This document shows positions 72 to 57,178 of a stretch of 64,000 nucleotides of DNA, in pieces (the stretch's first letter is position 1; every line of letters starts with the position of its first letter). The translations under genes and the position numbers were made by a program. The DNA comes from Mycobacterium dioxanotrophicus. GTDB taxonomy: Bacteria > Actinomycetota > Actinomycetes > Mycobacteriales > Mycobacteriaceae. The stretch spans positions 6,572,001-6,636,000 of the forward strand of contig NZ_CP020809.1 in assembly GCF_002157835.1 (NCBI RefSeq), read 5' to 3'. The notes under the pieces are model-generated. The model did not search any database. It had not been told where the DNA came from and worked only from the letters and a program-made list of their open reading frames with translations.

Positions 72-1348
72 CGCCCCAACAGGGTCAGATCGACCATGGC
101 CGTGACCACGGCCCGGGCCTGCTCCGAATTCTGGTAACCCATGAGCCGGCCCAGGTCGATCACCAACGCCATCGCAGCATGAACCGCAAACCGCGCCTGA
201 CCGGCGCTCCACTGGGGCCGCACGGACATCACCAGGTTCACCCAGGATTCGACTGCCGACCTCTGCAGGTCGCGCAGGATCTTCTGGTCGGCGCCAGTCA
301 TGTTGAGACGTTCGGTGTAGTAGACGTAGTCGAGTTCCGGACGGGCGAACGAACGCGCGACGTAGCCGTCGATGAGCACCGCGAGTGCCTGCTCGGGATC
401 GGAGACCGTGCGCAGTACCTCGGCCATGTCTTCGGACAATCGATCGGCCGCCCGCCGGAATCCAGCCGCGAGAATGTCCGTCTTGCCGGAGAAGTACCGG
501 TAGATGCCCGATGCCGGCATGCCGACCGCACTCGCAATGTCCTCCATGGTGGTGTCGCGGTAGCCGTTCAGGTTGAACAACCGCAGCGATTCACTCAGCA
601 ACGCTTCGTATTTGGTGGTGCCGGTGGCCGGTGGGGCGTCGACCTCGATTGCTCCTCGCGTGCGCCCGACCCCGATTGCTCCTCGCGTGCGCCCCTGCGC
701 CACCGGATCGGCGGCCGCGGGAAGCTCGGGCAGATCCGCGGTGAGCACGGTGTCGACGATCTCGGCGAGCACCGCACGGATCTGGCCGGCCGGCAGCTTG
801 GCCCGGTGGTCGACGATGCTGCCGAGCACACTGAGCACAGCCGTGGACAACGTCCAGCGTTCGTGCGATCCGAGGTCCGGCCGCAGCACCCGCAGCGGCC
901 GCTGGATACGCAGGTGCACGGTTCGCATCTGGCTGTTCAACGCCGTCTGGTCGTCGCCCCGCAGGAACCGGGCCTCCCAGCGGTAGAGGCCACCGGACTC
1001 CCGGTTGGCCAGCGCGGTGTCGGTCAGGGCGGCGACCAGGCGCCGCAGTTCCTGACGCGGGTCCGGGTCGGGGTCCATCTCGTCGGCGAACGCAGTGCCG
1101 TCGACGAGTTGCTGGCCGAGGTTGAGCACGGCGTCGCGGAACAGTTCGTACTTGCTCGAATAGTGCCGGTACAACGCGGCCGCCGAGATCCCGACGCGCG
1201 ACGCGATGGCCTCCATGCTGACCCCGTGATAGCCGAGGGCGCTGAACTCCTCCGCCGAGGCGCGCGCGATCTGGGCTTTCCGGTCTTTCGGGCGGCGTCG
1301 CACGACAGCTGCACTCCGGTCGCCGCGGGTGGGCGGGGTGCGCGCCAT
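38..1348 (-). CDS. transcriptional regulator with two TetR domains
   Basis: A 436-residue DNA-binding regulator containing two full TetR units. The first helix-turn-helix lies at about residues 25-70 (GVSMEAIASRVGISAAALYRHY). The second is at about 245-290 (TTMEDIASAVGMPASGIYRYF). Each is followed by a helical ligand-binding-type region. Usual TetR proteins are about 200 aa, so this looks like a fusion or internal duplication. The linker (about 218-236) contains GRTRGAIGV then GRTRGAIEV, encoded by two tandem copies of the dispersed repeat described at 647-694. The ATG at 1348 is chosen because MARTPP begins the conserved part and a -10 box lies 6 nt upstream. The gene diverges from two small membrane protein genes, possible targets. 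Effector unknown. Confidence 0.88.
   Translation of the reverse strand: MARTPPTRGDRSAAVVRRRPKDRKAQIARASAEEFSALGYHGVSMEAIASRVGISAAALYRHYSSKYELFRDAVLNLGQQLVDGTAFADEMDPDPDPRQELRRLVAALTDTALANRESGGLYRWEARFLRGDDQTALNSQMRTVHLRIQRPLRVLRPDLGSHERWTLSTAVLSVLGSIVDHRAKLPAGQIRAVLAEIVDTVLTADLPELPAAADPVAQGRTRGAIGVGRTRGAIEVDAPPATGTTKYEALLSESLRLFNLNGYRDTTMEDIASAVGMPASGIYRYFSGKTDILAAGFRRAADRLSEDMAEVLRTVSDPEQALAVLIDGYVARSFARPELDYVYYTERLNMTGADQKILRDLQRSAVESWVNLVMSVRPQWSAGQARFAVHAAMALVIDLGRLMGYQNSEQARAVVTAMVDLTLLGRYRLRAALPAR
647..694 (-). repeat. two tandem copies of the GCGCACGCGAGGAGCAAT repeat inside the TetR linker
   Basis: On the minus strand GCGCACGCGAGGAGCAAT occurs twice, 27 bp apart (647-667 and 674-694 on the plus strand read as ATTGCTCCTCGCGTGCGC). 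The 27-bp period keeps frame and encodes GRTRGAI twice. The same motif recurs at 26673-26722, 46839-46854, 48896-48913 and 57161-57178. Confidence 0.85.
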
Positions 1349-1354
1349 GTCGAC

Positions 1355-1383
1355 ACCATAAACGGACCCGCGAATGTGGTCAA
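1355..1383 (-). promoter_or_regulatory. leaderless sigma-A-type promoter of the double-TetR gene
   Basis: Read on the minus strand: TTGACC (1383-1378), a 17-bp spacer, TATGGT (1360-1355), then 6 nt to the ATG at 1348. This spacing puts the transcription start at or within a base or two of the start codon, so the mRNA is probably leaderless. The assignment is from motif and spacing only. Confidence 0.6.
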
Positions 1384-1427
1384 AGGGGCCAGACACGGCA
1401 GAATGCCCATTAACATAGCCAGGGTTG

Positions 1428-1670
1428 ATGCCGGATGGGGGTCCCGTGCTGGTCAGGTTGCGAAGATTGCTGGCGTACCGTGTCGCGGTCGGCGAGTTGA
1501 TCGTCATCGCGCTGATCGTCGGTACCCCGTACGGGCTGATCGGGGTGATCTGGTCGAGCACCCACACCGAACATCTCCGGGAGATGTCCAGCCTGGATGC
1601 CGTGGTGTCGGCGCTCGGGTCGATCGTGTCGTGGCCGGTGCTGCTGTTCGCCGACGTTTGTATGACCTGA
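1428..1670 (+). CDS. small membrane protein
   Basis: An 80-residue protein with two hydrophobic segments: about residues 15-40 (ELIVIALIVGTPYGLIGVIW) and 58-75 (VVSALGSIVSWPVLLFA). No family was recognised; it resembles conserved small membrane proteins of mycobacteria. It is followed after 11 bp by another small membrane protein, so the two are likely co-transcribed. A GTG at 1446 with GGGG just upstream is an alternative start. A TAACAT box at 1411-1416 could be its -10 element. Confidence 0.6.
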   Translation: MPDGGPVLVRLRRLLAYRVAVGELIVIALIVGTPYGLIGVIWSSTHTEHLREMSSLDAVVSALGSIVSWPVLLFADVCMT

Positions 1671-1681
1671 AGGGGGCATAA

Positions 1682-55150: not shown

Positions 55151-55169
55151 CGCGTCATGTTCGCACGGC

Positions 55170-55805
55170 TCAGGGCTGGCCGGGCAACAATCTGACCATG
55201 AGGCCGTTGGCCTCGGCCAGCAGATTCCCGTCCGCGTCACGCAATTCGGCGTTGACGAATGCCTTGCGGCCCTCGGCTTCCCGCACCCAGCCGCGCGCGG
55301 TGAGCAGCGTGTCGATGGGCGTCACCTTGCGGTAGTCCACATGCAGGAACGCGGTGCGGCTGATGGGCCGCCCGGCGGCGTGGATCACCATGCCGAACAC
55401 CGAGTCGAACAACAGCGGCAGCACCCCGCCGTGCACGGCGTAGTTGCCGCCCACGTAGTACCGGCTGAAATCCACCTGCACTTCGACACCGTCGGGATCG
55501 AACTTGGCGACGGTCCATGGCGGCATCAGCAGGCTGCCCGCACCGGGCAGTGACGGCACGCGGTTGGCCGGGCCGACTCCCTCGGGCGCCTCGTACGGGG
55601 CGAGCAGTTTGACGAGTTCCTCGACGCGGTCGGCGGCCGCGTCCCAGACGTGAGCGTCCGGGTTCGCCGACACCGCCAGGTCCTGGGCACGGCGCATCGC
55701 CGTCACGAACCGCCCGAAACCCGGCCCGGGATCGGCGGCCTCGAAAACCGGGAATCCGCCGTGCTGTTCGAAAACCGAAACGGAGTCCGCCGCTTCCTCA
55801 CTCAC
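55170..55805 (-). CDS. PaaI-type hotdog thioesterase
   Basis: A 211-residue acyl-CoA thioesterase-like protein. The N-terminal half is helical; the hotdog domain (about 100-205) has [31 protein letters not shown], with the HGG motif of the PaaI/THEM group, then [23 protein letters not shown] and [31 protein letters not shown] 55805 overlaps the purA stop (GTGA), so it is translated with purA. Substrate unknown. Confidence 0.85.
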
Positions 55806-57097
55806 GAAGGGGCCAGGATGTCGCGCCGCACAATGGTCTGGTCCCGGCCCGGGCCCACACCGATGCACGAAATATGCGCGCCGGCAAGCTCTTCGAGGCG
55901 AAGCACGTAATCCTGCGCCTTGGCGGGCAGGTCGCTGAACTCGCGGGCGCCGGAGATGTCCTCCCACCACCCGGGCAGTTCCTCGTAGATCGGCTCGGCG
56001 CGATGAATGTCGGACTGTGTCATCGGCATCTCGTCGGTGCGCTTGCCGTCGACCGTGTACCCGACGCAGATCGGCACGGTCTCCAGGCTGGACAGCACGT
56101 CGAGCTTGGTCAGGAAGTAGTCGGTGATGCCGTTGACGCGGGTGGCGTAGCGGGCGATCACCGCATCGAACCAGCCGCACCGGCGCGGCCGTCCCGTCGT
56201 CACACCGACCTCGCCACCGGTCTTGGCCAGGTACGCCCCGTGCTCGTCGAACAGTTCGGTCGGGAACGGCCCCGACCCGACACGGGTCGTGTACGCCTTG
56301 AGGATGCCCAGCACCGTGGTGATGCGGGTGGGGCCGATGCCGGAGCCGACCGATGCGCCGCCCGCCGTCGGGTTCGACGAGGTGACGAACGGGTAGGTGC
56401 CGTGGTCCACGTCGAGCAGGGTGCCCTGCGACCCTTCGAGCAGCACGGTCTCGCCGCCTTCCAAGGCCTTGTTCAGCAGCAGCCGGGAATCGGCGATGCG
56501 ATGCTTGAACCCCTCTGCCTGGGTGAGCAGGTTCTCCACCACCTCGGCCGGGTCCAGCGCCTTGCGGTTGTAGATCTTGACCAGCACCTGGTTCTTGAAC
56601 TCCAGTGCGGCCCCGATCTTTTCGGCGAGCAACTGCTCGTCGAGCACATCGGAGACGCGGACGCCGATCCGGGCGATCTTGTCCTGGTAGCACGGCCCGA
56701 TGCCGCGGCCGGTGGTGCCGATCTTCTTGGTGCCCGCGTACCGCTCGACCACCTTGTCCATCGCGACGTGGTACGGCATCAGCAGATGCGCATCGGCCGA
56801 GATCAGCAACCCCGAGGTGTCCACTCCGCGCTCTTCGAGACCGCTGAGCTCGGTCAGCAGCACACCGGGGTCGACGACCACACCGTTGCCGATGACGTTG
56901 GTGACACCGGGCGTGAGGATGCCCGAGGGGATGAGGTGCAGGGCGAAGTTCTCCCCGGTGGGCAACACGACCGTGTGTCCGGCGTTGTTGCCGCCCTGGT
57001 AGCGAACGACCCATTGCACCCGGCCACCGAGTAGATCGGTGGCTTTACCTTTGCCCTCGTCGCCCCACTGGGCACCGATGAGCACGATTGCCGGCAT
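55802..57097 (-). CDS. purA: adenylosuccinate synthetase
   Basis: A 431-residue enzyme joining IMP and aspartate with GTP in AMP synthesis. [18 protein letters not shown] (P-loop and catalytic Asp), [51 protein letters not shown] and VGPGRDQTI are all present. Normal length. Divergent from the 196-aa conserved gene, as in Rv0357c/Rv0358. Confidence 0.97.
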
Positions 57098-57160
57098 GGC
57101 GTAATCTCCCGCCTATCTCCGCACCTTGAACTGGCGCAGCCGGTAGGTCACCTTATCCCA

Positions 57161-57178
57161 GCGCACGCGAGGAGCACA
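57161..57178 (+). repeat. dispersed repeat copy providing a ribosome binding site
   Basis: GCGCACGCGAGGAGCACA in the purA/57183 gap; GAGGAGC lies about 9 nt before the TTG start at 57183. Confidence 0.8.

What the first reader, a model, noticed from the sequence alone, without database searches (positions are those of the whole stretch)
647..57178. A dispersed 18-bp motif that serves both as ribosome binding site and as coding sequence
GCGCACGCGAGGAGCAAT or its close core occurs seven times: 647-667, 674-694, 26673-26694, 26701-26722, 46839-46854, 48896-48913 and 57161-57178. It lies before ackA and the TTG gene at 57183, where GAGGAGC is the only good Shine-Dalgarno. It lies in frame in the double-TetR linker and the MetZ N-terminus (RTRGA), and antisense in the PurT tail (IAPRVR). 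The seven copies are seen directly. A mobile or gene-conversion origin, or selection for a GAGGAGC initiation element, is inference. I do not know of a named family for it.
Basis: partly seen in the sequence, partly recalled or inferred. Interest (0 to 1): 0.72.

Follow-up and report, generated by a model that had tools for sequence, protein, structure and literature searches.

The report
Tiny spreading repeat in mycobacterial genomes
A DNA word of only about 18 letters has been pasted, typically 27 letters at a time, into dozens of places of this mycobacterial genome, where it may act as a ribosome landing site or add a short stretch to a protein; how so small a piece spreads is not known.

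Summary
The seven copies are real (0.19 expected) and are a sample of a genome-wide family. The core GCGSACGYGAGGAGC occurs 112 times in the 8.08-Mb genome (reversed pattern: 4), and in 162 of 396 genomes of the genus, with 0 to 147 copies.

Relatives show insertion. Three of five window sites (TetR linker, MetZ, PurT) are empty in a genome about 90-94% identical in their flanks, shorter there by exactly 54, 27 and 27 bp. At seven single-copy sites with a clean empty partner, +27 bp occurs at each; exceptions are listed. A unit is a fixed 15-18 bp plus about 9-12 locus-specific bases, and multiplies in tandem: 25 of 33 spacings in this genome are 27 bp; arrays inside genes keep the frame (28 of 28 spacings).

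Clusters are 13-fold enriched as Shine-Dalgarno sites before ATG. In genes they lie mostly sense, in one frame. A 9-bp target duplication is clear at truB but not general. Reverse-transcriptase and Y1/RAYT genes do not track copy number. Eight literature searches listed no description. Nearest known kind: cyanobacterial small dispersed repeats.

The parts
648..665 (-). core copy 1, in frame (RTRGAI) in the linker of a double-TetR protein (ORF 38-1567, - strand)
   Evidence: exact 18-mer; absent from G148 (net 54 bp for the pair)
675..692 (-). core copy 2 of the same tandem pair, 27 bp from copy 1
   Evidence: exact 18-mer
26674..26691 (-). core copy before the ackA start (ORF 25474-26670, - strand): GAGGAGC then AATTGG then ATG; units flanked by repeated ATGAC
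   Evidence: also in G148, absent from G103, net 52 = 2 x 26 by my count of the alignment
26700..26717 (-). upstream tandem copy at the pta-ackA junction (2 mismatches), 26 bp from the next, also followed by ATGAC
46837..46854 (-). core copy near the N-terminus of a MetZ-like protein (PPRTRGAETP), +27 bp against G148, +36 against G103
48896..48913 (+). core copy antisense in the acidic N-terminal tail of a PurT-like protein (IAPRVR), +27 bp against G148
57161..57178 (+). core copy whose GAGGAGC stands 7 nt before a TTG start (ORF 57183-57773); the 85 bases shown around it are identical in G148

Best explanation
This is a very small dispersed repeat of mycobacteria that spreads by insertion. 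SHOWN: insertions add about 27 bp each, namely a near-invariant 15-bp core (GCGSACGYGAGGAGC), an A-rich triplet, and about 9 bases that differ from locus to locus. SHOWN: units also stand in tandem, near-identical and mostly 27 bp apart. INFERRED, and the step I commit to: the fixed 18-mer is copied into a staggered break, the roughly 9-bp stagger is filled in as a short target duplication (18 + 9 = 27), and slippage later multiplies the 27-bp unit. INFERRED: copies persist where they do no harm. Inside genes this works because 27 is a multiple of three and the core has no stop in any frame. Just before a start codon the GAGGAGC can serve as the Shine-Dalgarno, which makes those sites a favoured niche. 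That it is a spreading inserted repeat I hold at about 0.9; that the 9 bases come from target duplication I hold at about 0.4.
For: Copy number: 112 against 4 for the reversed pattern in this genome; 0 to 147 in 396 genomes. Empty sites: seven single-copy sites at which +27 occurs, and two-copy arrays at +54 at four sites (TetR linker, L191, L208, L226). Tandem spacing: 27 in 25 of 33 in this genome, picked without regard to spacing; 27 in 109 of 159 non-CDS spacings and all 28 CDS spacings multiples of 3 over all loci. truB: 9 of 9 flanking bases repeated exactly on both sides, +27 against 7 of 15 empty relatives. pta-ackA: ATGAC once in the empty G103 site, three times here around two copies. 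SD niche: 9 of 75 against 0.94%; antisense equivalent 3 of 75 against 2.49%.
Against: Only 6 of 54 truly single copies match at 6 or more of 9 flanking bases (z 2.5, while the control offsets -1 and +2 reach z 2.0), and four of those six are truB orthologues. The recent insertions at 48896 and L064 show no clear duplication. At LigC the apparent flanking repeat is a decayed second copy. Net lengths that do not fit 27 per copy: 36 (MetZ against G103), 28 and 30 at two ligase sites, 30-39 at truB against 8 of 15 relatives and 15-45 at its orthologues, 21-33 for L118 counted as three, 39 for two (one decayed), 87 for three (two sites), 78 for three, 98 and 81 for four, 50, 53 and 57 for two, 43 for two and 60 for two at low identity, 52 for two, about 24 at L008. 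Several junctions carry copies in scattered lineages, so loss as well as gain may be at work. Variable halves of different loci are slightly more alike than column shuffles (7 loci at 10 of 12 against about 2.5), which neither model explains. No enzyme was found.
Confidence: 0.6

Rival explanations
1. The mobile unit is the whole 27 bp: the 15-bp core is copied from a template and the other 12 bases are made without one, or by error-prone copying, so no true target duplication exists. truB would be a chance or later duplication.
For: Exactly +27 at sites without any visible duplication (48896, L064, G103 ligase paralogue). Variable halves of most single copies match neither flank, and no two loci share all 12.
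Against: 9 of 9 identity at truB, repeated more weakly in three of its orthologues; repeated ATGAC at pta-ackA; a significant excess of flank matches near the 27-bp offset in arrays, although decayed outer copies can also cause that.
Confidence: 0.3
2. Old insertions, patchily lost: most copies are ancestral to the genus and the empty sites are precise losses of 27-bp units.
For: Scattered presence at truB (own, G148, G158, G138, G196, G162, G119) and at pta-ackA (own, G148, decayed in G232 and G119). L064: present here and in L255, absent from the closer M. brisbanense.
Against: 234 of 396 genomes have no exact core. The TetR-linker site is empty in all 15 relatives aligned there. The empty sequences are simple and continuous across relatives.
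Confidence: 0.1
3. No mobility: convergent selection for a strong SD plus ordinary tandem duplication and codon usage.
For: Enrichment at SD positions before ATG.
Against: The same 15 bases also sit in reading frames, antisense and in intergenic DNA, with 27-bp lineage-specific insertions there; an SD needs only about 6 of the 15.
Confidence: 0.03
4. A retrotransposition or HuH (RAYT/REP-like) system carried by the host moves it.
For: A-rich bases after the core; REPINs and cyanobacterial SDRs are the nearest known small elements.
Against: RVT_1: none found in this genome; 7 of 26 high-copy against 12 of 29 zero-copy genomes. Y1_Tnp: none in the 12 highest-copy genomes tested; 8 of 26 against 6 of 29. 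No stable hairpin in five folds (z -1.0 to +0.8).
Confidence: 0.05

Closest known systems
Small dispersed repeats (SDRs) of Nostoc and relatives (Elhai et al. 2008, PMC2527708; content recalled, seen here only as mentions in PMC3116915 and PMC2884548)
   Same: About 20-27 bp, dispersed in many contexts, patchy between relatives, apparently mobile, no encoded enzyme
   Different: Different phylum; here a net insertion of about 27 bp, tandem arrays, an SD niche, and no shown conserved hairpin. Sequences were not compared
MIRU-VNTR of the M. tuberculosis complex (passages read: PMC3914561, PMC2734929)
   Same: Mycobacteria, dispersed and tandem; a longer tandem region upstream of fpg1 was linked to higher expression
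   Different: 46-101 bp units at 41 loci; here 27 bp with a 15-bp core. No sequence comparison with MIRU was made
REP/REPIN with RAYT (passages of PMC3116915 read)
   Same: Short, high copy number, non-autonomous
   Different: Those are palindromic or hairpin-forming and go with a Y1 transposase; neither was found here
Insertion sequences and MITEs with a 9-bp target duplication (recalled)
   Same: 9-bp direct repeat at truB
   Different: 18 bp, ends not inverted repeats, and no duplication visible at most single copies

Membership tests
Small dispersed repeats (SDR) | Unit of about 21-27 nt dispersed in many genomic contexts (recalled) | tested here: met
   About 27-bp unit, 75 clusters in genes, at starts and between genes
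Small dispersed repeats (SDR) | Evidence of recent mobility (empty sites in close relatives) | tested here: met
Small dispersed repeats (SDR) | Common secondary structure with compensatory changes (recalled for SDR4-6) | tested here: inconclusive
   Five single folds, two of them of composite strings, z -1.0 to +0.8; no covariation test was run; -1 is C/T in 88%, which could pair with a G in the core
MIRU | Unit of 46-101 bp (PMC3914561 passage) | tested here: not met
   Unit is about 27 bp
MIRU | Sequence homology to MIRU consensus | not tested
   No MIRU sequence was fetched
REP/REPIN | Palindromic hairpin | tested here: not met
   Core not palindromic (read directly); five fold energies no better than shuffles
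REP/REPIN | Associated RAYT (Y1_Tnp) gene | tested here: not met
   None found in this genome; 8 of 26 high-copy against 6 of 29 zero-copy
IS / MITE | Terminal inverted repeats | tested here: not met
   The two ends of the 18-mer are not reverse complements (read directly; no separate inverted-repeat search)
IS / MITE | Target-site duplication of constant length | tested here: inconclusive
   Clear at truB, weak overall
Minisatellite / VNTR | Head-to-tail copies varying in number between relatives | tested here: met
   20 arrays of 2-4 exact copies in this genome; number differs between species at one site. Does not explain the dispersal
Known Rfam RNA families | Match at gathering score | tested here: not met
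   Only a TPP riboswitch at 19044-19157 in the window

The most novel reading that the evidence does not exclude
An 18-bp core moves through mycobacterial genomes as an insertion of typically 27 bp by an unknown activity that is neither a host-encoded RVT_1 reverse transcriptase nor a Y1/RAYT transposase. It has reached more than 50 copies in at least ten species, this one included. It makes its own ribosome binding site where it lands before a start codon, and adds in-frame peptides where it lands in genes. It would be among the smallest mobile sequences known.
Probability: 0.5. Interest if true: 0.85.

Novelty: new variant of a known kind. Interest (0 to 1): 0.68.

Why it matters
It suggests that spread of a sequence too short to encode anything is not a cyanobacterial oddity. 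The recurring +27 bp, with readable empty sites, makes the insertion chemistry testable by sequencing close strains. It also rewrites translation starts and protein N-termini and linkers across a medically important genus, and could mislead start-codon annotation, ortholog alignment and VNTR typing.

Tried and rejected
Target duplication as a general rule: first read from L018 and L029, then weakened when L029 turned out to be a decayed second copy and when truly single copies gave only z 2.5. Donor copying: no two loci share all 12 variable bases, whichever way the 12 are split around the core; with 12 downstream bases, 3 units reach 11 of 12 against 0.4 in shuffles. Hairpin or RNA element: five folds unremarkable, no Rfam match. 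Reverse transcriptase or Y1 transposase: no association (Fisher p 0.39 and 0.54). The 26 'high' genomes are 26 of the 29 with 22 or more copies (G110, G151 and G005 left out as less complete); the 29 'zero' genomes are my choice out of 234. Phage carriage: 2 single 18-mer matches and no tandem match in viral contigs. Spread outside mycobacteria: 77 of the 80 named loci are mycobacterial; the two Streptomyces and one Amnibacterium matches do not look like this unit. The three non-mycobacterial loci were not dropped from the statistics; the two 13-bp spacings are L156. One search holds a p-value computed by mistake for 19 in-gene clusters; one search gives it for the right number, 20.
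Full report
OBSERVATION. The 18-mer GCGCACGCGAGGAGCAAT occurs seven times in the window with up to 3 mismatches, against 0.19 expected from 100 shuffles. In the whole genome (8.08 Mb, 5 contigs, window at C1:6572001-6636000) it has 66 matches with up to 2 mismatches and 0 for the reversed control. The 15-bp core GCGSACGYGAGGAGC has 112 exact matches, 39 forward and 73 reverse, against 4 for the control. I fetched 108 of the 112 (a listing limit hid the rest); they form 75 clusters, 20 of them tandem arrays of 2 to 4. 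All four variants of the two degenerate positions are common among the 108: 50, 30, 15 and 13.

DISTRIBUTION. Among 396 genomes of the genus, this one included, 162 have at least one exact core. Many of these have few, but some have bursts: G103 147 in 4.5 Mb, G353 99, G210 95, G148 86, G412 85, G252 85, G393 78, G162 59, G241 53. In 40 same-order genomes of other families the counts are 0 to 3, close to the control. By flank identity the window's genome lies near M. brisbanense and M. aquaticum (90-96% in five comparisons).

ANATOMY. Over 209 clusters of all loci held then (orthologues not removed), position -2 is C in 68% and -1 is C or T in 88%; downstream come A (74%), then A-rich positions, then locus-specific bases. 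Tandem spacings in this genome, whose copies were picked without regard to spacing, are 27 (25), 26 (5), 28 (2) and 23 (1). Over this genome and L147-L263, the latter found with a pattern that admits only spacings of 23-31, 16 CDS arrays give 27 (25 times), 30 (2) and 54 (1); 99 non-CDS arrays give 27 (109), 26 (33), 28 (9) and 8 others; 11 arrays too near a locus end are left out of this split. So 27 is preferred outside genes too, and the frame is kept inside them. The core has no stop codon in any of six frames (read directly).

EMPTY SITES. In G148 (92% over 12.3 kb; 90-94% in the flanks used) three of the five window sites are empty: TetR linker net 54 bp (two copies), MetZ 27, PurT 27; pta-ackA and 57161 are occupied. 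Two G148 clusters lay in the stretches of G148 that I held for this region, and both are these shared sites (the contig was held in parts). Over all fetched loci, one search kept comparisons whose flank anchors end within 30 bp of the core and whose partner has nothing core-like (under 10 of 15). Single-copy sites then are 48896 (27), 46837 (27 against G148, 36 against G103), truB here (27 against L120, L121, L122, L125, L130, L138 and L141; 30-39 against eight others, whose native N-termini differ in length), L064 (27 against M. brisbanense, 94/92%), two ligase sites in G103 (27 in 9 of 12 and in 3 of 5 comparisons, otherwise 28 and 30) and one in G049 (27 in 16 of 16). The G049 site and one of the G103 sites lie at nearly the same codon, so they may not be independent. 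The truB orthologues L116, L126, L131, L132 and L133 give 15 to 45. Two-copy arrays give 54 in L191, L208 and L226 (57 against another partner). Lengths that do not fit are listed under evidence against. At pta-ackA the empty G103 site reads ATGAC once, while this genome has it three times around two cores, net 52 by my count of the alignment; G232 and G119 have decayed core-like copies at the same junction. The TetR-linker site is empty in all 15 relatives aligned.

TARGET DUPLICATION. At truB the nine bases CCAGATCCC stand on both sides. Over 54 truly single clusters the mean match of left and right 9-mers is 2.98 against 2.55 in permutations (z 2.5; offsets -1 and +2 give z 2.0), and 6 reach 6 of 9, four of them truB orthologues. 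Over 154 arrays z is 4.0 and 5.8 at offsets 0 and -1, to which undetected decayed copies may add. So a 9-bp duplication is plain at truB and unproved elsewhere. No donor sharing the whole variable half was found.

PLACE AND FUNCTION. With a codon-usage classifier trained on the window, 9 of 75 clusters stand 3-14 nt before an ATG that opens the downstream frame, against 189 of 20,000 random window positions (binomial p 4e-8). With GTG and TTG it is 14 of 75 against 552 of 20,000; at least one of the 14, MetZ at 46837, is a false call, since that gene starts upstream. The antisense equivalent is 3 of 75 against 2.49%. In other genomes it is 18 of 113 classifiable clusters of 127, not all independent, because some are one orthologous site. 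Inside genes: 20 of 75 clusters against 62% of random positions (p 7e-10), 17 sense and 3 antisense, with 12 of the 20 in sense frame 0 (A-D/H-A/V-R-S) (p 0.003 and 1.5e-5). In G103 one DNA-ligase-like gene carries GADARSK three times in tandem and a second insertion RNLLRTRGARQ, and the divergent paralogue carries GAHARSKTDSGS, all in frame (gene name by resemblance, no Pfam run). The classifier is crude, the control comes from 64 kb only, and the SD role is inferred from position.

ENZYME. RVT_1 is found in 7 of 26 high-copy and 12 of 29 zero-copy genomes, and not in this genome. Y1_Tnp is found in 8 of 26 and 6 of 29, and in none of the twelve highest-copy genomes tested.

LITERATURE. The 15-mer GCGCACGCGAGGAGC is in no paper of the library. 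Seven further searches listed no paper whose title or abstract start describes this repeat in mycobacteria; subscription journals are mostly missing from the library. Passages of PMC2734929, PMC2884548, PMC3116915 and PMC3914561 were read. The SDR paper itself was not read; its content is recalled.

VERDICT. A real, very small inserted repeat with lineage bursts, confined to mycobacteria as far as tested. Its insertion as units of about 27 bp is well supported; the chemistry is open.

Noticed in passing
L135 and L140 (truB 5' end in G193 and G191): A different small repeat, GGAGCGNAGCGACCGGGGGATC, tandem 35-36 bp apart, sits at the same truB site; exact matches in 36 of 198 genomes of the genus, none in this genome.
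   Followed up: partly
L087 about 2035 and L113 about 1948: G103 and G049 carry core insertions at nearly the same codon of the same ligase-like gene while relatives, including the window's genome and G148, lack it: a hotspot or loss.
   Followed up: partly
window 46837-46880: The empty G148 site reads CCATCTGTG-CCCTCTGTG, a near 9-bp direct repeat without the insert, while G103 has it once; this could be a footprint of excision or an independent duplication.
   Followed up: no
whole genome G000: Clusters lie on the reverse strand of the contig more often than on the forward (47 against 28, p 0.04); the origin of replication was not located, so the cause is open.
   Followed up: no
L156 (Streptomyces diastatochromogenes): A 13-bp tandem repeat GGACGCGAGGAGC upstream of an ATG resembles most of the core; probably unrelated.
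   Followed up: no
window 19044-19157: TPP riboswitch on the - strand (55.3 bits).
   Followed up: no
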